From NCBI GenBank assembly GCA_001778095.1, contig MFGA01000020.1, forward strand, positions 139,805-182,384: a stretch of 42,580 bases of DNA, written 5' to 3'. The notes under the pieces are model-generated. The model was not told the origin of the DNA. It saw only the letters and a list, made by a program, of their open reading frames with translations, and did not search any database. The stretch comes from Candidatus Falkowbacteria bacterium RIFOXYA2_FULL_38_12 (GTDB lineage: Bacteria > Patescibacteriota > Patescibacteriia > XYB2-FULL-38-15). This document shows, piece by piece, positions 8,038 to 40,534 of the stretch (the stretch's first letter is position 1; each line of letters starts with the position of its first letter). The position numbers and the translations under genes were made by a program.

Positions 8038-8084
8038 TTATCCACAGCCATAAAGTTGCTACAAGTATTTTGCGGTGGTATATT
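8038..8084 (+). promoter_or_regulatory. Promoter with upstream DnaA-box-like 9-mer
   Basis: TTATCCACA 8038-8046, 9 nt, TTGCTA 8056-8061, 17 nt, TATATT 8079-8084. Confidence 0.75.
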
Positions 8085-8697: not shown

Positions 8698-9861
8698 ATG
8701 ACAAAATTTAAACTTAACTTAATGATGGTAGCAGTTTCATTATTTGCCTTTTTATCTATGCCAGCCTTAACAGAGGCACATTCAGTCGTAACTGCCACTT
8801 GGCATTCTGTCTCTCACGGACATTATGGTTTTTGTGGTCCAAATGGCTGTCCTACAGCAGATGCTACATTTGAGAGGAGCTATAGTTTTTTATCTCGAGA
8901 TAGGGTATTTTCGGGAACAGGAGCGTGGAACTGTCATGGCAGGACTTTTGACCTTAGAAGATCATGGATTTCACTTGCCGAACCTTATATAAATTACGAC
9001 AGACCGTATAGCCCCTCCAGCCCTAGAAGCGGAGACGCTATTATTTTTTGGCAAAGTGGACAAACCAGCCATTCAATAACCATGCTTAGCTCGTGGTCGG
9101 GGCTGGACACGCAAGTTATGAGTAAATATGGTACGCAAGGACAATACAGGCATAGATTAAGAGATGTCGCGCGTGTTTACGGAGGAGATTGGGCGATAAC
9201 CCGTTTTGCCGCAGGCACAAGAATTTATACCAGTCTAAGAGACGGTCAATTTACCAATCAGCCTTTTTCTAATTATTTTATTTTAGCCAGCAGTTCGTTA
9301 TTATCTCCCGGTGAAAAATTACGCGAGCAGAGAAAAACAATGCCATGGTACAAAGATGTTTTGGAATCACAAAAGATTTACGGAGAAGAGCATCCAAAAT
9401 TTGTTAAAAAAATTACCGGTTTAAATTCCAATCGAGTCAAGCAATTAGAAGATACTACGGATGTGTCAAAAGAAATATTGATTTTATTGGAAGACCTGAA
9501 AGACTTAAAACATTACGAATTATTGGGTGTATATAATAGCCCCGCGTTTTCAGCCGAGTTTATAGAAGAAATTGAAGCTGGTAAAAAACTTGTGGAAATT
9601 GCCAAAAAATATTCCAGCGAGAAAAAATACATCGCAGAATCTCTTTATGAGATTATAGAAAAATCCGATCACTATAACGAGGATCGTCTTCGCGGCGCAG
9701 CCGTATATTTTTTAACGCAGATATTGTCTGAAAAAGATATTGCCAAATTAAAAGAAAAGATGGGGCAAGAAATCAAGAGGGAACAAAAAGATATTGACAT
9801 GCCGTCGTATGTTGAATTTTATTTAGATAAGGCAGTGGAGGAAAAAGCCGCAAGCGCTTAA
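8698..9861 (+). CDS. Secreted protein with putative NlpC/P60-like cysteine hydrolase domain plus helical C-terminus
   Basis: Signal peptide; GAWNCHGRTFDLRRSW ... RSGDAIIFWQSGQTSHSITML (candidate Cys and His). Confidence 0.5.
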   Translation: MTKFKLNLMMVAVSLFAFLSMPALTEAHSVVTATWHSVSHGHYGFCGPNGCPTADATFERSYSFLSRDRVFSGTGAWNCHGRTFDLRRSWISLAEPYINYDRPYSPSSPRSGDAIIFWQSGQTSHSITMLSSWSGLDTQVMSKYGTQGQYRHRLRDVARVYGGDWAITRFAAGTRIYTSLRDGQFTNQPFSNYFILASSSLLSPGEKLREQRKTMPWYKDVLESQKIYGEEHPKFVKKITGLNSNRVKQLEDTTDVSKEILILLEDLKDLKHYELLGVYNSPAFSAEFIEEIEAGKKLVEIAKKYSSEKKYIAESLYEIIEKSDHYNEDRLRGAAVYFLTQILSEKDIAKLKEKMGQEIKREQKDIDMPSYVEFYLDKAVEEKAASA

Positions 9862-10197: not shown

Positions 10198-10244
10198 TTA
10201 TCCACAGGCATAAAATTGCTACAAGTATTCCAAGGTGATATATT
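10198..10244 (+). promoter_or_regulatory. Promoter with upstream DnaA-box-like 9-mer
   Basis: TTATCCACA 10198-10206, 9 nt, TTGCTA 10216-10221, 17 nt, TATATT 10239-10244. Confidence 0.75.
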
Positions 10245-10281
10245 AAAAGTAGAAAAGATAAAAATATTAGGGAATATTTTT

Positions 10282-10377
10282 ATGGATACAGGGAGAGGGA
10301 AAATTTTAATTACTATTTTACTTCGTGTAATTATTTTGCGGCATTTTTGTCCGCATTTTTTTATTAATTTAACGTAA
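10282..10377 (+). pseudogene. Truncated relic of a signal-anchor gene related to the ORF at 26232
   Basis: atggatacagggagag... ; gtaattattttgcggcatttttgtccgcattttttt closely matches ataattatttttgcggcattattgaccgcatttttt at ~26275. Confidence 0.5.
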
Positions 10378-11811: not shown

Positions 11812-11868
11812 TTATCCACAAAATTCACCTTATAGATATTTGCCATAGAAATTTTCAGATGGTATAAT
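11812..11868 (+). promoter_or_regulatory. Promoter with upstream DnaA-box-like 9-mer, spacing one helical turn longer
   Basis: TTATCCACA 11812-11820, 19 nt, TTGCCA 11840-11845, 17 nt, TATAAT 11863-11868. Confidence 0.75.
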
Positions 11869-12867: not shown

Positions 12868-15800
12868 GTGTTATTTAACTTCCCATCAAAATTAAAAAAA
12901 CACGCCCATATTCTGATTTTGGGTTTGTTTATTTTTACTCAAGTTTTTAGTGGGTTATTTTTATATGTAAAGTCGGCCGAGGCGCAGGGGTTGCCAACTA
13001 GCAATGCTATTCTAGATTCTGCGAGTGTTAAGGAGACCATAGATAGAGCTGCGGCAAAAAGATTGGAAGAGTTGCAAGGTTCGTGGTGGATGGGTCTTAT
13101 TTCTGCAGTGACCAACGCAGTTGGATATTTTGCCAACAAAATCGCTTACGACGCGGCCGTGGCTGTCGCCAGCTTGGGTTCGGGGCAAACTCCGGCTTTT
13201 TTTACTCAAGATTGGGGATCGTATCTTTCTGAAACAGGACTTAATTCTGCCGGAGAATTTATCGGGTCATTAGGCGAGGCTTATGGCGATGAGTTGGAGG
13301 GATCCGGTCTTGGAAATCTTTGTATGCCGCCGGATCCGCAATTTCGTTTGAATATTGGTTTAAGTCTTGCCGGATCAGTTGCTCCCAATGGACCGCAACC
13401 GCGTTGCGAATGGTCTAATATTGTTGATCAATGGGATACATTTATTACCGAAGCCAGCACTCCGGAAGTTTTGAGTCGTGTCAGTTTACAATTTAGCCCC
13501 GGAAGTGGCAGTGGTTTAGGAGCTTGGGTGCAAGCGCATGGTACAATGCAAGAAGGGATGCGGGACAGCGAGAAAAAGGCTACAAAGGAGAGAGAAGAAG
13601 GGCAAGGATTCAAATCAGTTGGAGAATTAATTACAAAGCGAATTAAAACACCTTCAGGTGTTATAAAAGATTCCATTACCAAACAAATTGATCCGAAAAG
13701 CGCGACTGAAGCAGATATAGAATCGGCTGGTAGCAAGTCTAGTTCAGCCGGCGCATTGATTGGATACAATGCTCTTGGTATGCTTGGCGGTATTGCTTCC
13801 AATTTTGTAAATACTCTTGCTTCAAAGTTGATGGATAGAGTAATGCACGGTTTGTCCTCTATAAAAGATATTGGCAAGCTTTTTCCCAAAGGAGGAAGCG
13901 GGCTGGATAACCCGGAATTTGCCGGTTTGGGTGGCAGGGCAGTGGCAGAGGCAACCTTTGCCGATTTTCTTGCGCCAAAGATTCAGGAGACAGGCAAATA
14001 CGATCCATTGGTTGAAATGATGACTTGCCCTTCGGGAGTCAATAAATCTCCGGAAAATTGTGTTTTGGATGGACAATTTGCTCAAGCTATCACTCAAGCG
14101 ACTATGGGAGATCCGATTACAGTCGCAGAAGCAATCAAAGACGGACTATTAAAAGGAACATGGCCATTAATTTCATCCGGTGATACTCGTCATAATGATC
14201 AATATTGTTTTCAAAAAGGCTATTGCTATAGCAATTTAGTTAAATTAAGAAAATATAGAATTATTCCAGTTGGTTGGGAGATGGCGGCAAATCTAGCCAC
14301 TGGAGATAGAACAGGGACAACTCTGGAAACAGTGGTAAAAGGTTTTAATACTTGTAATTCCAAAGGAATTGCCGATAATGATCACCCGTGGTGCCACCTC
14401 ATTGATCCGAATTGGGTTATAAAAGTTCCGGCTCATCAATGTAGGGCTAGAGTTTACGGGGCAATTTCAATAGAGGGTACAAGAGCCGAAACTTGTGTTG
14501 ATGCGCCGTCTTGTATTGCCGAAGATGGCGATGGAAATTGTGAAGGTGGCTGGGGTTATTGCACCAGAGAAAAAAATGTTTGGCGTTTACCCGGTGATCC
14601 TTGCGATTCTCAATTTGAATCTTGTCGAGCTCTCCGCACGAGAAGCGGAGAAGTAGAATCATATTTAATAAGTACGGTTGATTATGGTCCGCCTTGTTCG
14701 GCTGATGATGTTGGATGCAAGTGGTATTCAACTTATCAAGAGAAAGTTGGGGATGAATACAAATGGCAGGATAGGCCAAATGGCGCTGATCCGGAAGAAA
14801 AAACCGATAGAATCTATTTTAATAAAAATGTTGCCCAATGCAATGAAGAAGGATGTAGCGAGTTTTATAAAACAGACCAAGCGACGAATTTAAATTTAAT
14901 TGCCAATAGCAGTTTTGAGGAAGCGGAAAATATTGATGACGATGAAAAAGAAGCAAAATATTGGAGAGGAAGCAATGATAGATTTTCTTCTGTGGCTAAA
15001 GATGGAGGGAGTTCTTTGCAATTTGATGGAGGGGTGAGGACAATAACACAAGATGTTAGTGTGGGAAAACCTTTATCCGGGAGAAATTTTGTTTTATCTC
15101 TTTACGCAAGAAATTTTGAGGCGGGAGATTGCAACGGTACGGCAACAATTGGACCTCTGGGAGCGGGAGCCATATTCAAAAATGTGGCCATTGGAAGCAG
15201 TTCTTCTTGGAAAAGATACAAAACAGAAAGTCATTATTTCGCTAACAATCCAAGTGAAAATTTAAGAGTAATAATTACCGGCAATAATTGCTTAATTGAT
15301 GCGGTTCAACTTGAAGAAGCAAGTTCTGCTACCAATTATCATAGTGGCTGGGCCGGCTTGGGAGATGGGTTAAATCTCAAAAAAGCGCCGGAATATTATA
15401 ATTGTTATAACTATAATAATGACGGCACCGTAAAAACCAATGATGACGCTCCGCAATGTTCCGGCTTTATCGGCGCTTGTCAGGAAAACGAAGCCGGTTG
15501 CGAGATGTATTCTCCTCGCGATGGCGATCCGGCGATTCCCGGAATCACTAATTTTCCGAATGATTATTGTCCGCAGGAGTGCGTTGGTTATCAAACATTT
15601 AAACAATTAAAAACAAATTTTGAACAAGATAAATATCCGCTTTTCTTTATTCCAAAAACCGCAGAGAAGTGTTCGGCAAGTGAAGATGGTTGCGATGAGT
15701 TTACATCTTTAGAAACAGAGGCAGTAGAAAATTACAGTTCTTTGCGTCAATGTCAAAAACCCGGAGACGATTCAGCGGTATATTATACATGGGAAGGTTC

Positions 15801-18800
15801 GGATACAACCGGCTATCAGTTGAAGACTTGGAATTTAAAAGAAAGTGGAGAGCCGGCGGGGGTGAGTAACGCTGATCCGGAAAGCGGAATAGCGCCTTGT
15901 GTCAGTTTTGCTCCGGGAGTCGGTCCTGACGGCAGAAGAGCTTGCGCTCCATTACCCATATTGGCAGTTGGCACACCCGGAGTTTGCGTAAAAAATAATA
16001 CGATTGTCGGTTCAATAGATTATAATCCCGATTGTCGCGAATTTTATGATGCCCTGGGAAAAAGGCATTATCGTTTATATTCCAAAACAATAGTCTCTGC
16101 AGACGATTGTCATGAATACAGAAAGACATATTCAAACGAGGCTGATTGTTCTTCTTCGGGAGGGCTTTGGAATGTAGTAAATAACGATTGTAAATATGAT
16201 GTTTATCCGGCAGAATCAAAGAGGTGCAAATCGGTTGGTTGCCGAGCTTATCGGGGTAATGCCGGAGCTAATGTTAGAAATGTTTTTCAAAATAATTTTG
16301 AAACCGGAGCCGAAGAATGGACCGGTCCGGCAGCGCAAGTTTCACAAAGTTCGGAAGCGGTTGATAATGGTGGACATTCTTTAAAGATTGAAAGTCGTGC
16401 TGTGGCGGAAAAATCGGTCGCTGGTGGAATAAAAAAAGACGGTATTTATTTGATTTCTTTTTGGGCAAAGACAGAAGCCGCAAGAGGTCAAGCGAGTTTT
16501 CAGTTTAATGATGGGGCAATAGCGCCAGCTCTAAGACCGGTTCCGGCGATTTCCGAAGACCTATCTTTATCTTGGCAACAATACACAATCGGGCCGATTG
16601 AAATAACTTGGGAGCCGACCCCGGATAATTTAGCTACAGGTGACGTCGTGGAAGGGGATCGTCTCCAAGTAACGGCCAATAACGCGACAATTTATCTTGA
16701 CAATATTTTATTTAAAGAAGTCATAGACAGAATTTATTTAGTCAAAGATTCGTGGAATACTCCGGCGACTTGCGACCAGACTGCTTTTGGCGGATATCTA
16801 CCGCAAGCAATGCTCGGTTGCGAAGAATACAGAGACAGAGATAATCGCCAACATTTCTTAAAATCGTTCACCAGTCTTTGTCGCGAAGAAGCGATCGGGT
16901 GCCAGAAATTGGTTGATACAAAAAATAGCCAGTCGCCCTACGGAGAATTTTATAATGGGGTTTGTGTTATATCTGATGTAGCTGTTGATAGAGACAGAGA
17001 TGGAGACGTTGATGATCATGATATTTGTATTGATGCGGCAGGATGCGGTTGCAGTGTTAATGGAGCCAGAGTCTGCATCGTACCCCGCGGAGAAAATTCT
17101 TGCCGATACAATTCAGTCGGAATTATTCCGGCGCCGGCAAATAGAGTAGCTGATACGGTTGAGATTAAGGCCGATTCATACTCATTCTTAGTCGTGGACA
17201 AATCAAAAACTTGCAACCCCAGCAATATCGGTTGCGAGGCCTTTGGCGCGCCAAAATTGGATTCCATGGGGTCAATAATTTGTACTTTAGCGGCTAATTG
17301 CGGAGAAGAAGCTGGTTGTGAATGTAAACGCGACGGGGCAAAGATGTGTACAGTAGAAGACGGGAAGAGATCTTGCACCGGAGATTTTGACGCTGTTAAT
17401 TTCTTAAATAATCCTAAATTTTACGAAGGTCAAAGTAAGATTTTATGCGAAGCGTCTTATGATACTTGCGAAGAATATTTGGGAAGTGACGGAGCTAAAT
17501 TTTATTTCCGCGATCCGGGCAAACGCACTTGCGATTGGAAAGAAAGCGTTACCTATGGCGGAGAAAAACGTTCCGGATGGTTCAGGAAAGATGATAACGG
17601 AACAGATGTTCCTTGCTATCCCGATTATACTATGGCCGGAACCTTTGGCATTTGGAAAAACGCCGATCCCGACTACGAAGGGCGAGTCGGAAATTGTCCG
17701 GCGGATCAGAATCTTTGCACTAAATTTGTTGACCCAACAGCCACTTCCGGTGAAAATCCGGACGGCGAGCCATATTTCTATCTAAACAATGATAAATTGG
17801 AAAAACAAAAAGGAGAATGTAATGGTGAAGTTTCCTTGCAACAAGGATGTATTCTATTTGATGATACTTCCAATTTGAATAAGCTTTATAACGCCAACTC
17901 TACTTACTTGATAAGTGAAAAAGGATCGAGCAGCATTGAACCGGGCGGCAAAGTTGCTCCGGTTGATTGCACAAAGGGGGAGTGCAAAACATGCGGTCCT
18001 GAACAAATAGTTGGTCGTGCTCCTCCTGTATGCGACATAGATGATCCAAATGCTTATTGCAATACGGATCACTATTGTGTTTCTAATGGAGATTGCTCTT
18101 GGGACGATCCTTGGCCGTTGACATGTCAGTCGGATGAACACCTAAAAAACAACACCAACGTAATATTTAAAGTTAAAAAAGATCGTGTTTGCGGAGAATG
18201 GCTGGCTTGCAAGACAAGCACTACCACTTGGGATTCTTTCAGTAATAAAAAAAGAGAAATTTGCGATGGAATAGGTCTCTGTAATAAAGTTGCCGAAGGC
18301 AATCAGGCCGTTACTTGCGGTCAATGGATTGACGATTCTCCGGAAAATAAAACAGCGGAATTTTTAGATCTTGAAAAATACACCTCGCGCAACACCGGTT
18401 GGGAGGGTTCGGATTATTCCGGTTACTCTATTCCCAATCAATTTCCGGCCTATAAATTATCACAAGTTAATATTGCTGACGAAAAAACATCAAACGCCAT
18501 TAGCGCGGAAAGTGAGTGGAGATTAGGACTGATTGAAGAAAAGTATTGTTATGGGTTTCCTCCTCCTGCAGGTGATCCTCTTTCGAGGAATCCTGTTAGG
18601 AGTCGTCTTTGCGGTTTTCCCGGACGCGGACCGGTTAATGAAGAAAAGGGGACATGCTATGCCGAAAATGGTGTAAAATGTTCTACTAATCAAGTGGAAG
18701 AAGGTAAATCGATAATTCGCGAAGGAAAATGTTGGAATAAAAAATGTATTTACGACCCGGAAGGAAAACCAATAGACGGTTTCCCCAAATTTGCCGAATA

Positions 18801-21800
18801 TAAACCATTGGAAGCGGAAAGTGTTTATAGTCCAATGTGTCGAGCATATCCGGAAAAAAATTCTCCATTTCCTCGAGCAGTTGCCTATAATGAAGATGAT
18901 GAATCAGCTATAAAACAAGGTTTTGGCAATGCTCAAGTTTGCGAAGAACAATTTGTTTGTGAGGGGGGCGATACTTCCGGAGAATTTTGTTTTTCCGAAG
19001 AAGATGATTGTGGCGAAGAAGGAACTTGTAAAAAAATTGATAATCCTTGCGATTGTAGTTATACAAAGTTGACTTATCACGGGACAACAAAATATATTCA
19101 TAAAGATAATGATAAAATGCCGGAAAATATTTGCGTTGGCGGAAGTAAGGCCGGACAGTCATGCAAGCCTGAAGACTGTCCTTCAACCGAAGAAAGTCCG
19201 GAGAGTTGTGCTTGTGGTTCTTTTGGCAAATCCAATACCGGATCCTGCACCGGCAAAGATAAGGTGGAAACCGTTCTCGGCCTGGAAGGATATTGTCTGG
19301 AAAAAGATAAAACAACCTATATTAACGGCAGTCCGGAAGAAAATGCTTGTTTGACTTGGCTCCCGATTGACCATTTAAGCGGTTCGGTTGATGTTTACAA
19401 TCAATTTGTCAAGGCTGGTTACGCGCCGGGGGATAGTGGGCAGATGTGCATAGAAGCTGAATTATTCGTTAGGCCAACACCGATATGGGGTTGCGTTCAA
19501 GCTACGGGTGTAAACGGGTATAGAAGTGATGGTGCTTGCGAATATGAAACTATCTATGATGGTTCTGGGGCTTATGATGTAGATGATGTGTATTGTCAAT
19601 GGGAAAATAGTAGAAATGCAGGAGAGGGAGGTTGCATCTCCGGGAATATTACTCCCGCAACTTGTACAAGTTGCCCAACAGGGTGGACATATATTGAAAC
19701 AGGATGCTCTCCGACTAATGATGAGAACTACTGTGGCGCAAATGGATTTGGTCTTGACCAATGTATCTATTATTGTATTCCCCCAGGGCCATTACTAAAT
19801 AATTTAGGAGACGATGACCCAAATACAGAAGAAAAACCGATTATTCCAGGCGAAGCTTCAGTTTGTTTTCCTGATTTTATCACTGAGGCTGATAGGAGAA
19901 GCGAAAGGAGAGGCGGTTATTTTGAAGTAAAAAATGAAGCCAATACTTTTGAAATTGGAACAAGCGGAAATTCTCGCAAGTCCCCCGCTCTTTATTGTGA
20001 AGCTGATTATTACATGAAATATTCAGATTATCGTGAAATAATTGAAGGAACTGACGGTATACTCATTCGCTACAAAGGCACTGGTTATGGTAGGGAGAGT
20101 TGGCATAATCTTAAAAAAGTTGCGCCAACATTTGTTCCTGTTTGTAATAGGCTTGTTGAGGCTTCAGAAAGTAAAAATAGTTCAAAGGCTTGGACCGATC
20201 GTTTGTATAAAGATTCTAAAAAAGAATCTTGTGATGATATAAATGACGACGGTGAGGGAACTTGTATAAAGGGAACTTTAAGATCAGGGCTTCCTTGTAG
20301 TCAAAACTCAGATTGCGAAAAAATACGATCAAATGTTCTTAGAAGCGGAGATTTTCCTTCGCTTGAGTATACTTACGATAGTTCGTTGTCTCCATTCGGT
20401 TATAGACATAAAGACTTAAATAAACCGGCTGGAATTCCTTTTTGTTCGGATGAAGAGATTGGTAAAATGGAATTACCATCAGCTGATAACTTAGGATGTA
20501 GCCCGGGGATGAGTCTTTATGGAGAAAGGGACGGTCATTCAGCTTCAGCAAGACCATACTTAAATTTTTCTTATCAAATAAGGAGAAGTTGTGACGATGA
20601 CGCTGATTGTAGTTCAGAAGTAATTAGATGCGATATGGAGTGTAGACAAAAATGTGGAGAGGGTTTACCAGTATGTCCGCCCGAGACTGAGTGTTCCCCA
20701 GAAGATCATGAGTCTATTCCAACAATGGGAGATCTTATGACTCGTGCAGAAAAAGCTCTGTGTCCGGACGTAGTGGATGATAAAATAAGGTATTGTGTTC
20801 CTGTGGATGATTCAGAACCAGTTATTGGTAGAGGTTTGTTAAGGTTTGGAACATCGGGGGATCCCACGTGTACATCGGAGTGTGAAAGAGCTGAAAATGA
20901 TGGTATAGCTGTTGGTACTTGTAGCAATGTAGAGCGTAATTGTTTAAGAAAAGAAGATTGTTATACTTCTTTGTGCGCTTGGGAGGGTCGTCGTTCGGAT
21001 GATCCTATTGTGCAGAGGTGGCAAGATAATACTCGGCGGGAGTGGGATGAGTGGTCTGGCGGAGAGGGAGGATTTTGTAATGGTCTTGACGCAGAGGTTG
21101 ATGATCTTCCGGATGATGAAGGGGGAAAATATGATTTGGGAAAAACAAGAATCGCCGAGCTTTTTGCCAAAACCTTTAAAATATATGAATGGGAACCTAA
21201 AAATACAGCGATAGAGAGAGAAACTGATATAGATAATACAGATTTCGGGGCATATGTATTAATTGATTCAGAAATTGGCATACCACTTGAAGAGGACACT
21301 TTTTCCACCTGGGACATCACCGAATCCGGCGACCCGATCACTCGCGAAGCTCCAACCCCACCTCATGTCGCCCCCATCAAACTCCCTTGCATTAACAATA
21401 AATGTTCTCCAATGCAGGAGGTAGGAGAATATGTCTCCGGCTTTACCGTCAACGACAAAAACTCCGGCACTATTATTTCCCGTTCCGGCGAACTGGCCGC
21501 CAGTATTAAATTCTTTGCCTGGGCCGACAAAAACCAAATGCCTATAAAGAAAGTCTGCGTTGACTTTGGAAATGGTGATGATTCCCCGGATTGCGATGGA
21601 GGCTCTCCAATTAATTTCTACAAAAATCATTGGGGATATGATAGCTCCGGAGCTTCCGCCTGCGATGGATCGGATTTTGGCCATGCCAAACAAGCCTGCA
21701 CTGAAGAGCCATTTAGCTATAACGTAGTCTATACTTGCCCAAGCGATGCGGAAGATAGTATGGATCCTTGCCCCGAAGGAGATCCAACAGCAACAAATTG

Positions 21801-22017
21801 CTATACACCAAGTTGTGATTCTATCACCGGCGGTTGTTGCATCTTCCGTCCCAAGGTTCACGTTTTGGATAATTGGGGGTGGTGCACAGGGGAATGTGAT
21901 GGAAGATCGCAGGGGGGGTGCTATGGGACGGGGGGGATTGCTGGGGAATGTGATATAAATCAAAATTATCCTCATTGGACTACTTCAGGGGTAAAAGTGA
22001 TTGTAGCGCCGAGATAG
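12868..22017 (+). CDS. Giant secreted Cys-rich protein (3049 aa) with carbohydrate-binding-like jelly-roll segments and repeated Cys modules
   Basis: GTG start, signal-like hydrophobic segment ending KSAEAQG; CBM-like regions ~14889-15345 (NLIANSSFEEA...IDAVQLEEA) and ~16270-16720 (NVFQNNFETGAEEW...IYLDNILFKEV); at least ten C-x(n)-C-xx-[FYL] repeats. Confidence 0.85.
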   Translation: MLFNFPSKLKKHAHILILGLFIFTQVFSGLFLYVKSAEAQGLPTSNAILDSASVKETIDRAAAKRLEELQGSWWMGLISAVTNAVGYFANKIAYDAAVAVASLGSGQTPAFFTQDWGSYLSETGLNSAGEFIGSLGEAYGDELEGSGLGNLCMPPDPQFRLNIGLSLAGSVAPNGPQPRCEWSNIVDQWDTFITEASTPEVLSRVSLQFSPGSGSGLGAWVQAHGTMQEGMRDSEKKATKEREEGQGFKSVGELITKRIKTPSGVIKDSITKQIDPKSATEADIESAGSKSSSAGALIGYNALGMLGGIASNFVNTLASKLMDRVMHGLSSIKDIGKLFPKGGSGLDNPEFAGLGGRAVAEATFADFLAPKIQETGKYDPLVEMMTCPSGVNKSPENCVLDGQFAQAITQATMGDPITVAEAIKDGLLKGTWPLISSGDTRHNDQYCFQKGYCYSNLVKLRKYRIIPVGWEMAANLATGDRTGTTLETVVKGFNTCNSKGIADNDHPWCHLIDPNWVIKVPAHQCRARVYGAISIEGTRAETCVDAPSCIAEDGDGNCEGGWGYCTREKNVWRLPGDPCDSQFESCRALRTRSGEVESYLISTVDYGPPCSADDVGCKWYSTYQEKVGDEYKWQDRPNGADPEEKTDRIYFNKNVAQCNEEGCSEFYKTDQATNLNLIANSSFEEAENIDDDEKEAKYWRGSNDRFSSVAKDGGSSLQFDGGVRTITQDVSVGKPLSGRNFVLSLYARNFEAGDCNGTATIGPLGAGAIFKNVAIGSSSSWKRYKTESHYFANNPSENLRVIITGNNCLIDAVQLEEASSATNYHSGWAGLGDGLNLKKAPEYYNCYNYNNDGTVKTNDDAPQCSGFIGACQENEAGCEMYSPRDGDPAIPGITNFPNDYCPQECVGYQTFKQLKTNFEQDKYPLFFIPKTAEKCSASEDGCDEFTSLETEAVENYSSLRQCQKPGDDSAVYYTWEGSDTTGYQLKTWNLKESGEPAGVSNADPESGIAPCVSFAPGVGPDGRRACAPLPILAVGTPGVCVKNNTIVGSIDYNPDCREFYDALGKRHYRLYSKTIVSADDCHEYRKTYSNEADCSSSGGLWNVVNNDCKYDVYPAESKRCKSVGCRAYRGNAGANVRNVFQNNFETGAEEWTGPAAQVSQSSEAVDNGGHSLKIESRAVAEKSVAGGIKKDGIYLISFWAKTEAARGQASFQFNDGAIAPALRPVPAISEDLSLSWQQYTIGPIEITWEPTPDNLATGDVVEGDRLQVTANNATIYLDNILFKEVIDRIYLVKDSWNTPATCDQTAFGGYLPQAMLGCEEYRDRDNRQHFLKSFTSLCREEAIGCQKLVDTKNSQSPYGEFYNGVCVISDVAVDRDRDGDVDDHDICIDAAGCGCSVNGARVCIVPRGENSCRYNSVGIIPAPANRVADTVEIKADSYSFLVVDKSKTCNPSNIGCEAFGAPKLDSMGSIICTLAANCGEEAGCECKRDGAKMCTVEDGKRSCTGDFDAVNFLNNPKFYEGQSKILCEASYDTCEEYLGSDGAKFYFRDPGKRTCDWKESVTYGGEKRSGWFRKDDNGTDVPCYPDYTMAGTFGIWKNADPDYEGRVGNCPADQNLCTKFVDPTATSGENPDGEPYFYLNNDKLEKQKGECNGEVSLQQGCILFDDTSNLNKLYNANSTYLISEKGSSSIEPGGKVAPVDCTKGECKTCGPEQIVGRAPPVCDIDDPNAYCNTDHYCVSNGDCSWDDPWPLTCQSDEHLKNNTNVIFKVKKDRVCGEWLACKTSTTTWDSFSNKKREICDGIGLCNKVAEGNQAVTCGQWIDDSPENKTAEFLDLEKYTSRNTGWEGSDYSGYSIPNQFPAYKLSQVNIADEKTSNAISAESEWRLGLIEEKYCYGFPPPAGDPLSRNPVRSRLCGFPGRGPVNEEKGTCYAENGVKCSTNQVEEGKSIIREGKCWNKKCIYDPEGKPIDGFPKFAEYKPLEAESVYSPMCRAYPEKNSPFPRAVAYNEDDESAIKQGFGNAQVCEEQFVCEGGDTSGEFCFSEEDDCGEEGTCKKIDNPCDCSYTKLTYHGTTKYIHKDNDKMPENICVGGSKAGQSCKPEDCPSTEESPESCACGSFGKSNTGSCTGKDKVETVLGLEGYCLEKDKTTYINGSPEENACLTWLPIDHLSGSVDVYNQFVKAGYAPGDSGQMCIEAELFVRPTPIWGCVQATGVNGYRSDGACEYETIYDGSGAYDVDDVYCQWENSRNAGEGGCISGNITPATCTSCPTGWTYIETGCSPTNDENYCGANGFGLDQCIYYCIPPGPLLNNLGDDDPNTEEKPIIPGEASVCFPDFITEADRRSERRGGYFEVKNEANTFEIGTSGNSRKSPALYCEADYYMKYSDYREIIEGTDGILIRYKGTGYGRESWHNLKKVAPTFVPVCNRLVEASESKNSSKAWTDRLYKDSKKESCDDINDDGEGTCIKGTLRSGLPCSQNSDCEKIRSNVLRSGDFPSLEYTYDSSLSPFGYRHKDLNKPAGIPFCSDEEIGKMELPSADNLGCSPGMSLYGERDGHSASARPYLNFSYQIRRSCDDDADCSSEVIRCDMECRQKCGEGLPVCPPETECSPEDHESIPTMGDLMTRAEKALCPDVVDDKIRYCVPVDDSEPVIGRGLLRFGTSGDPTCTSECERAENDGIAVGTCSNVERNCLRKEDCYTSLCAWEGRRSDDPIVQRWQDNTRREWDEWSGGEGGFCNGLDAEVDDLPDDEGGKYDLGKTRIAELFAKTFKIYEWEPKNTAIERETDIDNTDFGAYVLIDSEIGIPLEEDTFSTWDITESGDPITREAPTPPHVAPIKLPCINNKCSPMQEVGEYVSGFTVNDKNSGTIISRSGELAASIKFFAWADKNQMPIKKVCVDFGNGDDSPDCDGGSPINFYKNHWGYDSSGASACDGSDFGHAKQACTEEPFSYNVVYTCPSDAEDSMDPCPEGDPTATNCYTPSCDSITGGCCIFRPKVHVLDNWGWCTGECDGRSQGGCYGTGGIAGECDINQNYPHWTTSGVKVIVAPR

Positions 22018-22364: not shown

Positions 22365-23057
22365 TTATGGCCATACGATTCGCCATTCCCCTGAATCTCC
22401 CCGAGGGCTATCCCACGTCCCCTCGAGAACCGAGGAGGAGACGCGGGTTCCGGTCAAGGTGGTGTCTCGATCAACCAAGACCATTAAACCCTCGTGGGTG
22501 ATGCTTCCATATACGGAAGCTCCCCCGATTTCCCCCGTCAAATCCGTGCCTTCCTGGAGAATGAAGGCGACCGGATATTCCCCCTCTGTCCCCAAGAATT
22601 CATTGTGCAACCAGAGGGTTCCCTCTTCACCCTCCACCAAAGGGTAGAGCACGAAGGGAGTGGCGGGGGAGGAACAGTCCTCGGTCACGATGAGCGTGTC
22701 CGGGGACTCGTCGTAGTCGTTCAGGTCGAACGACAAGACGACTTCCTGCCCTCGGGGGAGAGGCAGGGTGGCGGGAGTGAACGATCCAGAAGGGATTCCA
22801 TTCACCATGACCTCCGCGTTTTGAGGCACGGAGTCGATGAGGATGCTTGGGCAAAGCTCCTCATCGCCATCGTTGTCCGCGTCGGCGTCGCCGTCACCAT
22901 CGGGAGGGCAAGGTCGCCCCCCCGCGAAGTCGGCTCCGCCGCCGACTTCGATGCAGTCCGCATCGGCGTCGGGTTGGATGCCGTCGTCGCATGCTGCGAC
23001 TACGGCCAGTGAAATAACCAGCGCCGTCAGAAGGACGGACTTCAGTTTTTTTTCCAT
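22365..23057 (-). CDS. GC-rich putative lipoprotein with Asp/Gly/Ala-rich linker and PEGA-like domain
   Basis: Minus strand; MEKKLKSVLLTALVISLAVVAACDDG lipobox; SD ggaggaggg upstream of ATG at 23057; PDGDGDADADNDGDEELC linker; SILIDSVPQNAEVMVNGIPSGSFTPATLPL PEGA-like. Confidence 0.75.
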   Translation of the reverse strand: MEKKLKSVLLTALVISLAVVAACDDGIQPDADADCIEVGGGADFAGGRPCPPDGDGDADADNDGDEELCPSILIDSVPQNAEVMVNGIPSGSFTPATLPLPRGQEVVLSFDLNDYDESPDTLIVTEDCSSPATPFVLYPLVEGEEGTLWLHNEFLGTEGEYPVAFILQEGTDLTGEIGGASVYGSITHEGLMVLVDRDTTLTGTRVSSSVLEGTWDSPRGDSGEWRIVWP

Positions 23058-23096
23058 CTTTCCCTCCTCCCCGTTGGGGGGGTTGTTGAAAATTAC

Positions 23097-23154
23097 CAAG
23101 TAGCAGTTTTTAACTGTGTATTTTTTCCTTAATACAAGGCTAAAAACTGCTACT
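23097..23154. repeat. Hairpin with ~15-bp perfect arms upstream of the lipoprotein gene
   Basis: aagtagcagttttta ... taaaaactgctactt. Confidence 0.75.
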
Positions 23155-23321
23155 TTGCAAATAGACAAAGGAGGTTTTTGAGATGTTTTTCGGTTTTTGT
23201 TTCAAACCTATTTTTCAAAGAATATTTTGTGTCTTTTGACACACCAAAATTGCAGATGCGGTATCTGTCCCTCTTAGCATCTACATTATTTTAACCTACA
23301 CCTTTTTTGAGGTTTTGTCAA

Positions 23322-23472: not shown

Positions 23473-23608
23473 GTCATTGCGAGCCCCGACCCTTTAGTCG
23501 GGGCGTGGCAATCTCCCATTATCTATTTAAAGAAGGGGATTGCTTGCACCGTCGCTAAAGCTATGGCGCACATAGTCGTCGCTCCCTTTGGTCGCTCCTC
23601 GCAATGAC
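23473..23608. repeat. Palindromic repeat family B (GTCATTGCGAG...CTCGCAATGAC)
   Basis: GTCATTGCGAGCCCCGACCCTTTAGTCGGGGCGTGGCAATC...CTCGCAATGAC; full copy also at 35301-35408. Confidence 0.85.
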
Positions 23609-23812
23609 TATATTTTTGTCAAAGAACGCCGACGTGTCTTCATTTTTAGTATAGCTTAGTTTTATTAAGAGGGGATGAAGAAGTGGGGGGGGTAGTTTTT
23701 GTCCGTTTCTCGTTTTTCTGGTATATTAAGGGTGGAGAAAAATTAAAATATCTGCCGGAGAGGAGGTGAATAAATAAAAGACATCTAACTAAAATTTAAT
23801 CAAGCACTTTTT

Positions 23813-25549: not shown

Positions 25550-25880
25550 AGAACGCGAGGCGCTTTATCTTAAAGATATCTTAGGCTCAATCCAAAGTAT
25601 TAAGAGCTATACTTATGGTTTTACTTTCGAACAATTTTTAAGAGACCCAAAAACCCAAGACGCCGTTTTGAGAAATTTAGAAGTTGTCGGCGAAGCGGCG
25701 CGCCACATTACCAAAGAAACAAAGAAAAATTATTCAGAAATTCCATGGCGACAAATTGTTGATATGAGAAATAAAGTAATTCATGAATATTTTGGCGTAG
25801 ATTTAAAAATTCTTTGGAAAACGGTTCAAGAAGATATTCCTTATTTAGAAAAAGAAATTAAAAAGATTTTGGAAAATTGA
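25542..25880 (+). CDS. hepT: HEPN-domain toxin (HepT/DUF86 family)
   Basis: DAVLRNLEVVGEAARHI...WRQIVDMRNKVIHEYFGVD; RNKVIHEY motif; 8-nt overlap with mntA. Confidence 0.9.
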   Translation: MFKEREALYLKDILGSIQSIKSYTYGFTFEQFLRDPKTQDAVLRNLEVVGEAARHITKETKKNYSEIPWRQIVDMRNKVIHEYFGVDLKILWKTVQEDIPYLEKEIKKILEN

Positions 25881-25930
25881 TTTTTATTATGGAATAATCC
25901 TTGTGTCGGAAATTTTAATACAGTCAATTA

Positions 25931-26068
25931 ATGACACCCTCTCCACCTGGAACATCACCGAAACCGGCGACTCGATTACCGGAGAAATACCAAAACCTCC
26001 CCACGTCGCACCCCTTAAACTTCCTTGCGTCAAAGAACGCCGATGCGCCTCCATCTTTAGTATAGCTT
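25931..26068 (+). pseudogene. Relic of the giant-gene 3' region, fragment 1
   Basis: DTLSTWNITETGDSITGEIPKPPHVAPLKLPCV matches giant DTFSTWDITESGDPITREAPTPPHVAPIKLPCI, then KERRCASIFSIA*. Confidence 0.85.
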
Positions 26069-26123
26069 AGTTTTATTAAGGGGGGACAAAGAACACATTA
26101 TTTTTTAATACAGTACTGAAAAT

Positions 26124-26170
26124 TTATCCACAAGAGTAAAGTTGTTATAAGTATTTTAGTATGCTATATT
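26124..26170 (+). promoter_or_regulatory. Promoter with upstream DnaA-box-like 9-mer
   Basis: TTATCCACA 26124-26132, 9 nt, TTGTTA 26142-26147, 17 nt, TATATT 26165-26170. Confidence 0.75.
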
Positions 26171-26231
26171 GAAATTAGAAAAGAAGAAAAAATAAAAATA
26201 TTTTTACCATGAGAGGAGGTGAATTATTTTT

Positions 26232-26657
26232 ATGAGAACAAAGAGAGAAAAAATCTCAATTATTGTTTTGGTTTTTATAATTATTTTTGCGGCATTATTG
26301 ACCGCATTTTTTGTTCTAAATGGGCCGGAGAGTTGCAGTATTGTTTTGGATGATTATTTTAGAGAAAGACGCGCAAAAGATTTTTACGGGAGCCAGGGTC
26401 AAAAATATTATAATTACATGCCAAAAGATATTATGGAAAAGCATAGAAATACAATAAAAGCAGTTGATGAAATAATGAAAAAAGGAAATATGAACGGCTA
26501 TACTTCCGACAATGATCATTTCGATCTAAACACATACGTTCATCTCATCCAAGTTGGTGTAGTTCCTTATATCAGCAAAGAAGATCCGTTACTCAAAAAA
26601 GTTAATGAACTGATAGGCGATATTCTGGATCGTATCACTATTAAAAATAAAATTTAA
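26232..26657 (+). CDS. Membrane-anchored stand-alone copy of the N-terminal domain of the downstream amidase
   Basis: KYYNYMPKDIMEKHRNTIKAVDEIMKKGN...LIQVGVVPYI aligns with NFYDYIPKELLQKYGATINKIDDLIKNGN...WIQVAIFPYI at 26677; SD AGGAGGTGA 9 nt before ATG. Confidence 0.8.
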   Translation: MRTKREKISIIVLVFIIIFAALLTAFFVLNGPESCSIVLDDYFRERRAKDFYGSQGQKYYNYMPKDIMEKHRNTIKAVDEIMKKGNMNGYTSDNDHFDLNTYVHLIQVGVVPYISKEDPLLKKVNELIGDILDRITIKNKI

Positions 26658-26676
26658 TTAATCAAAATTAAAGTTT

Positions 26677-27705
26677 ATGTGTAAAATTCCTAAGAAAAAA
26701 TACCTGACATTTTTGCTAGTTTTAGCGACATTATTCTTCTTGTCTTCCCCGATAATCAATGCCGAAGATAATAAATTTAAGTTGGCCTCAAAAGAAAGTT
26801 TAAAGGAATATTATGAGAGCGAGGATGAAAATTTCTATGATTATATTCCGAAAGAATTATTGCAAAAGTATGGTGCTACTATTAATAAGATTGATGATTT
26901 AATTAAAAATGGAAATTACATCGGAGGAGTTCTTTCAACTAATAACGAGTTTTCTCTGAATTATTATATAAAATGGATACAAGTAGCCATATTTCCCTAT
27001 ATTAAAGATAAAAAGTTTACTAACGAAGTTAATCTTTTTTTAAGCGATGCCTCAGAGTACGTAATTAATAAGGAAAAAATAAAAAAGAGATGGGAAAAAT
27101 TGGGGGGAGAACCCCAGTCAACGGTTTGGAGAGATGGCAAAGATAATAAAATAAGTTCCGTAAGAATAGCAATAGATGGGCTAGGTTATAATGCGACGAA
27201 GGCCGTGGAATATGCAAAAAAATGGACAGATAATACGCGGGAACTTAGAAATCCGAATTATAGTTATTATATAGGAAGATTTGATTGCACTGATTTTGTT
27301 TCCCAGGTTTTACACGATTCAACTGCTGGCAATCTATCAGAGATTAGAATTGATCACTGGGGTTTTGATTATGATGATTTAGATAATTGGTATTATGCAA
27401 ACGGGTTCTTAAATCCACCAAGTTGGACATGGGGGGGCGCACAAAATTTCTATTCTCACTTGGGTTCATATAGACGAAATATAACAAGGTTAACTAATTG
27501 GAGAGATGTCCGAGTCGGCGATATTATTCAATGGGATATGACGCCAAGTAATAGAACTGTCGATATCGGCCATTCAACAGTTGTTACTAAAATTGAGCGG
27601 GGGAATTATTATCTTACTTATCACAGCACAGACAAAGAAGATGAGCCAATAACTACTTTTACTAGTAGCGGTTATATTCCCTACGCATGGGCAATAAACC
27701 ATTAA
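26677..27705 (+). CDS. Secreted putative amidase (Amidase_6-like NlpC/CHAP-fold) with N-terminal paralogous domain
   Basis: Signal peptide; YNATKAVEYAKKWTDNTRELRNPNYSYYIGRFDCTDFVSQVLHD...VGDIIQWD...IGHSTVVTKIE. Confidence 0.8.
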   Translation: MCKIPKKKYLTFLLVLATLFFLSSPIINAEDNKFKLASKESLKEYYESEDENFYDYIPKELLQKYGATINKIDDLIKNGNYIGGVLSTNNEFSLNYYIKWIQVAIFPYIKDKKFTNEVNLFLSDASEYVINKEKIKKRWEKLGGEPQSTVWRDGKDNKISSVRIAIDGLGYNATKAVEYAKKWTDNTRELRNPNYSYYIGRFDCTDFVSQVLHDSTAGNLSEIRIDHWGFDYDDLDNWYYANGFLNPPSWTWGGAQNFYSHLGSYRRNITRLTNWRDVRVGDIIQWDMTPSNRTVDIGHSTVVTKIERGNYYLTYHSTDKEDEPITTFTSSGYIPYAWAINH

Positions 27706-28283: not shown

Positions 28284-28464
28284 ATTAAATTCAAAACAAG
28301 TTATTAAACTTTTAGAGAAAAATGGCTTTGTCCACGATCACACAACTGGCAGCCATTTTATTTTTTATCATCCAATCACTAAAAAAAGAGCGGTCGTGCC
28401 ATATCACACTAAAAATTTATCCATAGGTACACTGAAAAGTATCTTACGTGAGGCCGGTATTTAA
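28267..28464 (+). CDS. hicA: HicA toxin (mRNA interferase family)
   Basis: LNSKQVIKLLEKNGFVHDHTTGSHFIFYHPITKKRAVVPYHTKNLSIGTLKSILREAGI; overlaps hicB by 17 nt. Confidence 0.92.
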   Translation: MLHLPRLNSKQVIKLLEKNGFVHDHTTGSHFIFYHPITKKRAVVPYHTKNLSIGTLKSILREAGI

Positions 28465-28466
28465 GA

Positions 28467-28560
28467 ATATCGCTCCCCTTAAACTCCCCTGCATCAACGA
28501 CAAATATTCTCCGCTAAAAGAAAGAGAAGAATATGTCTCCGGTTTGTCAATCTTGGTTGA
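28467..28560 (+). pseudogene. Relic of the giant-gene 3' region, fragment 2
   Basis: IAPLKLPCINDKYSPLKEREEYVSGLS matches giant VAPIKLPCINNKCSPMQEVGEYVSGFT. Confidence 0.85.
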
Positions 28561-28750
28561 CGGAATTTTCGTTTTAAGATGCCATCCAGTCAGAGTCCGT
28601 CCCTTTAGGGCGAGATAAATTCTGTCTCTGCCTAAAGGCAGGGCTCCAACAAGCGGACAATTTGTCAAAGAACGCCGATGCGCCTCCATTTTTAGTATAG
28701 CTTAATTTTATTAAGGGGGGATGAAGAGGGGGTTGTATGGCTCTTTGTCC

Positions 28751-37826: not shown

Positions 37827-38507
37827 ATGCAGAGCAAGAAACTTGCCGGAAAAAAAGTCGGAGTATCCACAAGAGAACGTTTGGATATAGCGGAAATCCG
37901 CGAAGATTGTGTTGTCTTGAAAGACGGGACAATGCGAGCGGTAATGCTTATCTCAAGCATTAATTTTGCGTTAAAATCCGAGGAAGAGCAAAACGCGATC
38001 ATTGCGGCTTACGTTTCTTTTTTAAACGCGATAGAATTTCCTTTGCAAATTGTTATCCAGTCAAGAAAACTTAATATTGACGCCTACTTGGAAAGATTAA
38101 GAAAAGCGGAAAAAGAGCAGGGAAACGATTTATTGAGAATTCAAATTGCCGACTATCGCGAATATGTGAAAGAACTTGTGGAGATGGGGGATATCATGAG
38201 CAAGCGTTTTTATATCACGGTTCCCTATGATCCGCTTTCCGACAAACGAAAAGGATTTTGGTCAAGATTAAACGAGGTTATTCGTCCGGGATCTGCCATT
38301 AAATTGGGCGCGGAAAGATTTAGAAAAAGGAAAAAAGATCTTTTTGCTCGAGTTGAGCATGTGCAGATGTTGTTGTCGGGTATGGGGCTTACTTCGGTTG
38401 TTTTGGATACGCAAAGTCTAATAGAACTTTATTATAATCTCTATAATCCTGAACTGGCAGAAACGGAAAAAATGGTTGATATGGGAAAACTAAGGGTTGG
38501 AGAATAA
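37827..38507 (+). CDS. VirB4/TraC N-terminal-domain protein (split VirB4)
   Basis: LDIAEIREDCVVLKDGTMRAVMLISSINFALKSEEEQNAII...; TraC-type N-domain directly upstream of the VirB4 ATPase. Confidence 0.75.
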   Translation: MQSKKLAGKKVGVSTRERLDIAEIREDCVVLKDGTMRAVMLISSINFALKSEEEQNAIIAAYVSFLNAIEFPLQIVIQSRKLNIDAYLERLRKAEKEQGNDLLRIQIADYREYVKELVEMGDIMSKRFYITVPYDPLSDKRKGFWSRLNEVIRPGSAIKLGAERFRKRKKDLFARVEHVQMLLSGMGLTSVVLDTQSLIELYYNLYNPELAETEKMVDMGKLRVGE

Positions 38508-38510
38508 AAA

Positions 38511-38612
38511 AGTTAAAAGTTAAAAATGAAAAATGTAAAGTTCAGTTAAAATTAAATAATTTTTCATTTTAAACCGTAACTTTTAATTTTTCACTTTTCA
38601 CTTTTAACTTTA
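38511..38612. repeat. AT-rich inverted repeat between the two VirB4 halves
   Basis: agttaaaagttaaaaatgaaaaatg ... tttcattttaaaccgtaacttttaatttttcacttttcacttttaactt; same family as the giant-gene flanking repeats. Confidence 0.65.
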
Positions 38613-38617
38613 CTAAC

Positions 38618-40534
38618 ATGGCTTTTACACCAAGCGCGGTCTATAAAAAAGAAAAAGTAGCGACTGAGATAAGCAATATTTCTCCGGAAGAACAGAAGCG
38701 TCTCGCAGAAGAGGAAAAAATACTGCTTGAAGAGGAGCGGATTTATCGTCGTGGTTCTGTCTCGGTGCAAGATTTGATTTCACCAGCTTCAATGAAAATT
38801 GAGCCGTCTTATGTTCTCCTGGGTGATAAGTATGTCCGGACGATTTTTGTTGTCACTTATCCGCGTTATATTACTGTCGGTTGGTTTACGCCGATTGTGA
38901 ATTTGAATACGGCTTTGGACATCGGAATGTTTTTTTATCCGGTTAAAGCAGAAATAATTTTAAAGCAACTTAAAAAGAAAGCCGGAGCTATTGAGGCGCA
39001 AATTTTGGGAGACGCGGAAAAAGGCGCTCCTCGCGATCCGCTTCGCGAAACGGCTCTTCGCGACATTGAACAGCTTCGCGATGACTTGACTCAAGGCATT
39101 GAACATTTTTTTCAATACGCTCTTTATGTGACAATTTATGCCAAAAGTAAAGAAGAACTGGATAAAACGTCTGAAGAGATAGAATCGATTTTTGGCTCAA
39201 AACTAATTTATACCAAAAGAGTTTTTTATCAGGCGGAGCAAGGTTTTAATTCCACATTACCCCTTTGCAATGATGAATTGATGATTACTTTTAACATGAA
39301 CTCTTCGCCGATTGCCTCGTCTTTTCCATTTATGTCGGCGGAGCTAAGTTCGGATAATGGAATTTTATATGGCATAAATCGCCATAATAACAGTTTAATT
39401 TTGTTTGATCGTTTTTCTCTGCAAAACGCTAATGCCGTTGTTTTTGCGACCTCCGGCGCTGGGAAAAGTTATGCTATTAAGCTCGAAGTTCTGCGTTCGT
39501 TGATGCTTGGCGTTGATGTTTTAGTTATTGATCCGGAAATGGAATATAAGCATTTGTCGGATGCGGTGGGTGGAGCTTATATTAATATTTCTTTAGCGTC
39601 TGATTCTAAAATAAATCCATTTGATTTGCCGCGTCCGGTAGGGGATGATACGAGCGCGGAAGATATTATCAGGAGTGCAGTTATTACCTTAAAGGGATTG
39701 TTGCGCCTGATGCTTGCTCGTCCAGGTGAGGGAGGAAAACTTATTTTTTCTCCGGAAGAAGATTCTTTGCTTGATAGAGCGCTAATTGAAACATATGCCA
39801 GAAAAGATATTACGCCGGACACCAACTTAAAATCGGGAATTGAGCCTCCGATCATGAGAGATTTGCAAAATATATTAGAAGGAATGACCGGGGCGGAAAG
39901 CTTGGTGGAAAGATTAAAAAAATATACTGAAGGAACATTTTCCGGACTTCTAAATTCGCCGACTACGGTTGATGTAAGAAATCCTTTGGTTATTTTTAGC
40001 GTCAGAGATCTTGAAGACGAACTTCGTCCGATTGCCATCTATAATATTATAAATTTTATTTGGGCGGTTGTTAGATCGGAAAGAAAAAGGAGAATCTTGG
40101 TGGTTGACGAGGCGTGGTGGCTTATGCAACATGAAGATAGCGCCAAATTTATTTTTGCTTTAGCTAAAAGATGTCGTAAATATTATTTGGGATTGACAAC
40201 GATCACACAAGACGTCAATGATTTTCTTACTTCTCCTTATGGTCAGGCGATCGTTACCAACTCTTCCATTCAGATTCTTCTGAAACAATCATCAGCGTCG
40301 ATTGACTTGATTCAAAAAACATTTATGTTGACGCAAGGTGAAAAATATTTGCTCTTAGAGTGCGGAGTCGGCGAAGGAATCTTCTTTGCCGGAGCGAAAC
40401 ACGCGGCTATAAAAATCGTCGCGTCATATTCCGAAGATCAATTAATAACTTCCGATCCTAAACAACTCTTGGAAATTGAAGCAGCCAAAAAAGAATTTGA
40501 CGAAGAACTCGCCATGGAGAATGAGCCGGCTTGA
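38618..40534 (+). CDS. virB4: VirB4-like T4SS ATPase
   Basis: Walker A VFATSGAGKSYAIKLE; VLVIDPEMEYKHLSDAVGG; Walker B RRILVVDEAWWLM. Confidence 0.9.
   Translation: MAFTPSAVYKKEKVATEISNISPEEQKRLAEEEKILLEEERIYRRGSVSVQDLISPASMKIEPSYVLLGDKYVRTIFVVTYPRYITVGWFTPIVNLNTALDIGMFFYPVKAEIILKQLKKKAGAIEAQILGDAEKGAPRDPLRETALRDIEQLRDDLTQGIEHFFQYALYVTIYAKSKEELDKTSEEIESIFGSKLIYTKRVFYQAEQGFNSTLPLCNDELMITFNMNSSPIASSFPFMSAELSSDNGILYGINRHNNSLILFDRFSLQNANAVVFATSGAGKSYAIKLEVLRSLMLGVDVLVIDPEMEYKHLSDAVGGAYINISLASDSKINPFDLPRPVGDDTSAEDIIRSAVITLKGLLRLMLARPGEGGKLIFSPEEDSLLDRALIETYARKDITPDTNLKSGIEPPIMRDLQNILEGMTGAESLVERLKKYTEGTFSGLLNSPTTVDVRNPLVIFSVRDLEDELRPIAIYNIINFIWAVVRSERKRRILVVDEAWWLMQHEDSAKFIFALAKRCRKYYLGLTTITQDVNDFLTSPYGQAIVTNSSIQILLKQSSASIDLIQKTFMLTQGEKYLLLECGVGEGIFFAGAKHAAIKIVASYSEDQLITSDPKQLLEIEAAKKEFDEELAMENEPA

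What the first reader, a model, noticed from the sequence alone, without database searches (positions are those of the whole stretch)
26232..27705. Secreted amidase paired with a stand-alone paralog of its own N-terminal domain: candidate enzyme-immunity/propeptide-inhibitor system
The 141-aa protein aligns along its soluble part with the N-terminal ~90 residues of the amidase (YNYMPKDIMEKHRNTIKAVDEIMKKGN...LIQVGVVPYI vs YDYIPKELLQKYGATINKIDDLIKNGN...WIQVAIFPYI). A membrane-tethered copy of a putative prodomain is a plausible inhibitor of the secreted enzyme, analogous to stand-alone cysteine-protease propeptide inhibitors. A decayed relic of its signal-anchor region exists at 10282.
Basis: partly seen in the sequence, partly recalled or inferred. 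Interest (0 to 1): 0.75.

Follow-up and report, generated by a model that had tools for sequence, protein, structure and literature searches.

The report
Secreted amidase with membrane-anchored N-domain twin
A Patescibacterium carries, inside its type IV secretion locus, a gene for a secreted cell-wall-hydrolase-like enzyme next to a gene for a membrane-anchored copy of that enzyme's own front domain; the copy may restrain or position the enzyme, but nothing computed here shows which.

Summary
The 141-aa product of 26232-26657 matches residues 43-135 of the 342-aa product of 26677-27705 (36% identity; 73 bits against a maximum of 30 in about 2000 shuffles). Codon-position differences (38/22/53) and a consensus Shine-Dalgarno indicate a maintained gene. 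The anchor relic at 10282 is real. The enzyme's C-terminal half is Amidase_6 (PF12671), with Cys204 and His299 kept. Clostridial Amidase_6 proteins lack this N-domain and are often stand-alone, so 'prodomain' is not supported. The N-domain was found nowhere else (145 relatives, 382 phylum genomes, PDB by sequence and fold). Both genes lie in an island inserted in the Patescibacterial T4SS locus. Their promoter type occurs four times in the genome, all at this locus, one at the head of the T4SS operon. Inhibition was not testable: the full-length model failed (pLDDT 45) and a two-chain model was not possible. Trans-regulation of the amidase by its anchored N-domain copy (restraint at the own membrane) is the best guess at about 0.4; rivals are a positive tether, shared docking to the T4SS, and a duplication by-product. 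In plasmid-borne actinobacterial loci, Amidase_6 enzymes are often followed by an unrelated small lipoprotein, a weak parallel.

The parts
26124..26170 (+). Promoter of the pair: TTATCCACA box, 9 nt, TTGTTA (-35), 17 nt, TATATT (-10)
   Evidence: Aligned with copies at 8038 and 10198; pattern found 4 times in the genome, all in this window; sigma-70-like hit
26214..26222 (+). Shine-Dalgarno AGGAGGTGA, 9 nt before the ATG of the small gene
   Evidence: Sequence; the other 16 start regions listed show no such consensus
26232..26657 (+). 141-aa small protein: N-terminal hydrophobic anchor and soluble N-domain copy
   Evidence: hydropathy peak up to 3.3 for windows starting at residues 3-16, no lipobox or clear signal-peptidase site by eye; no Pfam or NCBIfam family
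26376..26654 (+). Soluble domain paralogous to the amidase N-domain (residues 49-141)
   Evidence: tblastn 36% over 94 columns, E 6e-17; shuffle control; codon-position differences 38/22/53
26677..27705 (+). 342-aa secreted amidase; signal peptide about residues 1-29
   Evidence: hydrophobic segment followed by INA-E (signal peptide read by eye; hydropathy windows at residues 8-12)
26803..27081 (+). Amidase N-domain (residues 43-135), predicted helical
   Evidence: AlphaFold2 on the domain alone pLDDT 73.4, pTM 0.68; no fold match
27187..27666 (+). Amidase_6 catalytic domain (residues 171-330)
   Evidence: PF12671 76.4 bits, cut-off 23.2; Cys204 and His299 conserved in homologues
27286..27288 (+). 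Codon of the putative catalytic Cys204 (FDCTDF)
   Evidence: 95% conserved among 22 aligned proteins
27571..27573 (+). Codon of the putative catalytic His299
   Evidence: 100% conserved among 22 aligned proteins
10198..10374 (+). Relic: second copy of promoter, leader and signal anchor, stopped after 31 codons
8038..8136 (+). Third copy of the promoter/leader, in front of anchored 175-aa protein 8122-8649 and secreted 387-aa protein 8698-9861
11812..11868 (+). Fourth promoter of the same pattern (box 10 bp farther from -35), upstream of 11890 and the giant gene 12868
25879..26067 (+). Decayed fragment of the giant protein's C-terminal region, directly before the pair
   Evidence: tblastn 39% over 94 aa, E 3e-13, with stops

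Best explanation
A gene for a secreted Amidase_6 enzyme with an otherwise unseen helical N-domain sits in the T4SS locus of a Patescibacterium, probably after lateral acquisition. A partial duplication left a second, N-terminally anchored copy of the N-domain as the first gene of the same putative operon. The most likely working model is regulation in trans. The anchored copy is made first and probably in excess. It sits on the outer face of the producer's membrane and engages the enzyme through the surface that the enzyme's own N-domain uses, either towards the catalytic domain or N-domain to N-domain. This keeps the hydrolase restrained near the producer's own envelope until it is released or reaches a neighbouring cell. 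Shown: the paralogy, the hydrophobic anchor, the catalytic residues, the genomic setting and the shared promoter. Inferred: co-transcription, excess, binding and restraint.
For: Adjacent paralogy well above chance. Small gene maintained: more differences at codon position 3 than 1 than 2 (53/38/22 of 92 codons), and an open frame with chance about 2e-5 at local base composition. Small gene first, with a consensus Shine-Dalgarno that the amidase start lacks. Anchored versus exported N-termini. Catalytic Cys and His kept, so the enzyme is probably active. Promoter type shared with the T4SS operon and found nowhere else in the genome. Loose parallel: in plasmid-borne actinobacterial loci, Amidase_6 enzymes are followed by a small lipoprotein or anchored protein in 6 of 8 loci, three of four sequence clusters. 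Precedent for the idea: stand-alone propeptide-like protease inhibitors (PMC6993865, PMC4089206; abstracts).
Against: No structural or biochemical evidence of binding; the full-length model failed. Clostridial Amidase_6 genes mostly have no small partner within 150 nt, so the enzyme family does not need one. The actinobacterial lipoproteins are not detectably related to the enzymes' N-domains or to the small protein here. The pair is known from one genome only, so co-evolution cannot be tested.
Confidence: 0.4

Rival explanations
1. Positive tether or scaffold: the N-domain is a self-association (or wall/partner-binding) module, and the anchored copy holds the secreted amidase at the membrane, near the T4SS, so that it opens the wall locally. 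The copy localises the enzyme rather than inhibiting it.
For: Duplicated domains often self-associate (general knowledge). The pair lies inside the T4SS locus and shares the T4SS promoter type. Monoderm T4SS carry wall hydrolases (VirB1-like, with CHAP domain), and in a Saccharibacterium peptidase and lysozyme homologues next to virB4 are essential (PMC12102498). The amidase also matches CHAP below the cut-off.
Against: No evidence of self-association; the single-chain N-domain model says nothing on oligomers. The pair is absent from relatives that have the T4SS, so the T4SS does not need it.
Confidence: 0.27
2. The two N-domains bind the same third partner (a T4SS surface part or a wall component), without direct effect on each other; the N-domain is a docking or delivery module.
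For: Both copies keep the same motifs (YxYxPK, GN, IQV..PYI) while the rest diverged. T4SS neighbourhood.
Against: No partner identified; only one genome.
Confidence: 0.15
3. By-product of duplication: the small gene is a truncated or shuffled copy with no present role, in an island full of fragments.
For: The islands contain a broken anchor copy (10282) and fragments of the giant gene (25879, 28454). Single-genome occurrence.
Against: Open frame, position-3-biased divergence and a consensus Shine-Dalgarno argue for maintenance after duplication. With 36% identity the copy is old, so a free-running copy should have decayed as the 10282 relic did. The codon pattern cannot fully separate constraint on this copy from constraint on the amidase alone.
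Confidence: 0.13

Closest known systems
Amidase_6 (PF12671) proteins, e.g. B. subtilis YhbB and YjcM
   Same: Catalytic domain family, Cys and His positions; export-type
   Different: Clostridial and actinobacterial members examined have no N-domain or an unrelated one (NTF2-like by eye); the activity of YhbB and YjcM is listed as not determined (PMC10653849)
Stand-alone propeptide-like protease inhibitors (I29 crammer/CTLA-2alpha; Plasmodium SUB1 propeptide-like protein)
   Same: Idea of a separate gene product related to an enzyme's own N-terminal domain
   Different: No match to the I29 propeptide family in Pfam; the N-domain is not shown to be a propeptide; here the copy is membrane-anchored and encoded in tandem
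VirB1-like wall hydrolases of monoderm (MPF-FATA) T4SS such as PrgK, TraG, CD419
   Same: Related papain-like amidase class and T4SS neighbourhood
   Different: No lytic transglycosylase domain, different family (CHAP only below cut-off), absent from related T4SS loci
Peptidoglycan amidase effector-immunity pairs (T6SS Tae/Tai; Tae3 placed with Amidase_6 in PMC10318531)
   Same: Amidase paired with a small envelope-located protein
   Different: Immunity proteins there are not described as paralogues of the effector (own knowledge); a PDB profile search with the amidase domain found nothing
Actinobacterial Amidase_6 plus downstream small lipoprotein (plasmid loci L010, L110, L112, L116, L117)
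   Same: Secreted Amidase_6 enzyme next to a small membrane-tethered protein
   Different: Reverse gene order, unrelated small proteins, no detected similarity between lipoprotein and enzyme N-domain

Membership tests
Amidase_6 (PF12671) | Profile match above the curated cut-off | tested here: met
   76.4 bits against 23.2
Amidase_6 (PF12671) | Catalytic Cys and His conserved | tested here: met
   Cys204 95%, His299 100% of 22 aligned proteins
Amidase_6 (PF12671) | Hydrolysis of peptidoglycan or another amide bond | not testable with these tools
   Needs an enzyme assay
I29-type propeptide inhibitor | Sequence similarity to the cathepsin propeptide family | tested here: not met
   No I29 match at E up to 1 in Pfam; no convincing PDB relative
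I29-type propeptide inhibitor | Binds and blocks the active site of the enzyme | tested here: inconclusive
VirB1-like T4SS hydrolase | Encoded within a T4SS locus | tested here: met
   Between the giant gene and the VirB6-like gene; PrgI and VirB4 in the window
VirB1-like T4SS hydrolase | SLT and/or CHAP domain | tested here: not met
   CHAP 23.1 bits, below the cut-off 26; no SLT
Effector-immunity pair | Second gene protects the producer | not testable with these tools
   Needs an expression assay
Effector-immunity pair | Pair conserved together across strains | tested here: inconclusive
   Only one genome has either gene; no second strain at hand

The most novel reading that the evidence does not exclude
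The junctions ksgA/11890 and giant/VirB6 of the Patescibacterial T4SS locus are acquisition sites for small cassettes under a T4SS-type promoter, each made of a membrane-anchored small protein and a secreted protein. In the amidase cassette the immunity protein is an anchored duplicate of the enzyme's own N-domain: immunity made by partial duplication of the enzyme.
Probability: 0.17. Interest if true: 0.65.

Novelty: new variant of a known kind. Interest (0 to 1): 0.36.

Why it matters
If the anchored copy restrains the enzyme, self-protection can arise by partial duplication of the enzyme itself, and wall-active enzymes in an epibiont-type secretion locus would become directly testable candidates for attack on the host bacterium. 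If not, it is still a clean case of a domain split from its enzyme inside a variable T4SS island.

Tried and rejected
Scans of viral contigs for N-domain or amidase relatives: the machine gave no answer in eight attempts, so no deeper alignment was available for structure prediction. Structure of the full amidase from 3 sequences: unusable. Fold search with the N-domain model: no match, best probability 0.30. Profile of the two N-domains over 382 phylum genomes: outside the own genome only hits with E of 6.5e-4 or worse and at most 19 bits, judged chance. Idea that 8698 (secreted, next to anchored 8122) is a distant amidase: no profile similarity, no family. Idea that the actinobacterial lipoprotein is a copy of its enzyme's N-domain: no similarity. 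Idea that the TTATCCACA box is private to this locus: 31 copies genome-wide, although the full promoter pattern is private; the box is absent upstream of the 11890 homologue in seven relatives.

Full report
Observation. Two + strand genes lie 19 nt apart: 26232-26657 (141 aa) and 26677-27705 (342 aa). Their products match over the soluble part: 36% over 94 columns, E 6e-17 in a tblastn search of the window, and 69 bits in the pairwise comparison. Against about 2000 shuffles of the small protein's soluble part the real score is 73.2 bits, the shuffled maximum 30.0. There are only these two copies in the 914-kb genome.

Anatomy. The small protein begins with a long hydrophobic segment (19-residue mean hydropathy up to 3.3) after a positive start, without a lipobox or clear cleavage site, so it is read as a signal anchor. 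The amidase has a shorter hydrophobic stretch followed by INA-E, read as a cleaved signal peptide (both readings by eye). Residues 171-330 of the amidase are Amidase_6, PF12671, 76.4 bits. In an alignment of 22 proteins Cys204 (DCT[ND]F) and His299 are kept. The N-domain and the small protein match no Pfam or NCBIfam family and no PDB chain convincingly by profile. The N-domain alone is modelled as a helical domain, pLDDT 73.4, with no fold match in PDB or viral models.

Is the small gene alive? Between the copies the differences by codon position are 38, 22 and 53 in 92 codons, and an open frame of 141 codons has a chance of about 2e-5 at the local base composition. The small gene has AGGAGGTGA 9 nt before its ATG; the other start regions listed, the amidase among them, lack it. 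Together this favours a maintained gene, translated more strongly than the amidase behind it (inference). The codon pattern cannot fully separate constraint on one copy from constraint on both.

Distribution. No relative of either protein was found in 145 related genomes. PF12671 reached a strong score only in the own genome out of 382 in the phylum; the three other matches are weak and their proteins look different. The N-domain profile found nothing convincing in the same 382. In Clostridia PF12671 is common (27 of 60 genomes above cut-off), as a stand-alone domain of about 160-200 aa or behind an unrelated N-domain. The gene here was therefore probably acquired laterally, and its N-domain is not a general propeptide of the family.

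Setting. The window holds a Patescibacterial T4SS locus: PrgI (37179), VirB4 (38618), a VirB6-like protein (29531) and a giant Cys-rich protein (12868). In six of seven relatives with usable stretches, ksgA, an 11890 homologue, the giant gene and the VirB6-like gene follow in that order; in the seventh the 11890 homologue was not matched. ksgA and the following gene are close together in all seven. Between giant and VirB6 there is no gene or one gene in five of them and several genes in two (L104, L109). Here 3.9 kb is inserted after ksgA and 7.5 kb after the giant gene, and the pair lies in the second island. That island also holds a metalloprotease-like gene, an MNT/HEPN pair, HicBA and decayed fragments of the giant gene's C-terminal region.

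Promoter. The promoter part recurs at 8038, before an anchored 175-aa protein that is followed by a secreted 387-aa protein. The pattern TTATCCACA-N8-22-TTGnnA-N16-18-TATAnT occurs four times in the genome, all + strand and all in this locus; the fourth is upstream of 11890 and the giant gene, with the box 10 bp farther out. Three of the four are evident duplicates, so they count as one event; the fourth is the independent link to the T4SS operon. The 9-mer alone occurs 31 times in the genome (reversed control: 1) and is absent upstream of the 11890 homologue in seven relatives.

Parallel. In eight plasmid-borne actinobacterial loci, Amidase_6 enzymes are followed in six by a small lipoprotein (L010, L110, L112, L116, L117) or anchored protein (L113), in two by neither (L114, L115). 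One Streptomyces plasmid carries a stand-alone relative of that group's enzyme N-domain without a catalytic domain (L111). The lipoproteins show no similarity to the N-domains, and those tested are unrelated to the small protein here. This is a resemblance in layout only, from few and partly near-identical loci. Clostridial loci mostly have no small partner.

Mechanism. The layout fits regulation in trans by an anchored copy of the enzyme's N-domain, made first and perhaps in excess. Restraint at the own membrane is the reading I rank first (0.4), before a positive tether for the T4SS (0.27), docking of both N-domains to a third partner (0.15) and a by-product of duplication (0.13). The tools could not decide: the full-length model has pLDDT 45 and no two-chain model could be run.

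Verdict. Observation confirmed; interpretation partly supported and untested at its core. A new variant of a known kind, of moderate interest, limited by its occurrence in a single genome.

Noticed in passing
window 8122-8649 and 8698-9861: Anchored 175-aa protein followed by a secreted 387-aa protein with Cys and GD..HS motifs reminiscent of papain-like amidases, behind a copy of the same promoter; no family match and no relative of 8698 in 96 genomes.
   Followed up: partly
window 25879-26067 and 28454-28552: Decayed fragments of the C-terminal region of the giant T4SS-linked protein (12868-22017), bracketing the amidase pair and HicBA; resembles displaced C-terminal modules in polymorphic toxin loci.
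   Followed up: partly
window 8038, 10198, 11812, 26124: TTATCCACA (identical to a DnaA-box consensus) upstream of the -35 in four promoters of the T4SS locus, at two spacings 10 bp apart (about one helical turn).
   Followed up: partly
window 23584-23671, 26007-26091, 28642-28726: Short repeat (KERRCASIFSIA in one frame) at three places in the second island.
   Followed up: no
window 37827-40534: VirB4 appears as two ORFs (37827-38507 and 38618-40534); split gene or separate domains.
   Followed up: no
L111 2411-2962: Stand-alone relative of the Streptomyces Amidase_6 N-domain, with an export-type N-terminus and no amidase next to it.
   Followed up: partly
window 22365-23168: Minus-strand Asp-rich lipoprotein-like gene between the giant gene and the island; Asp-rich lipoprotein-like genes also sit near the same junction in relatives (L102, L104, L109).
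   Followed up: no
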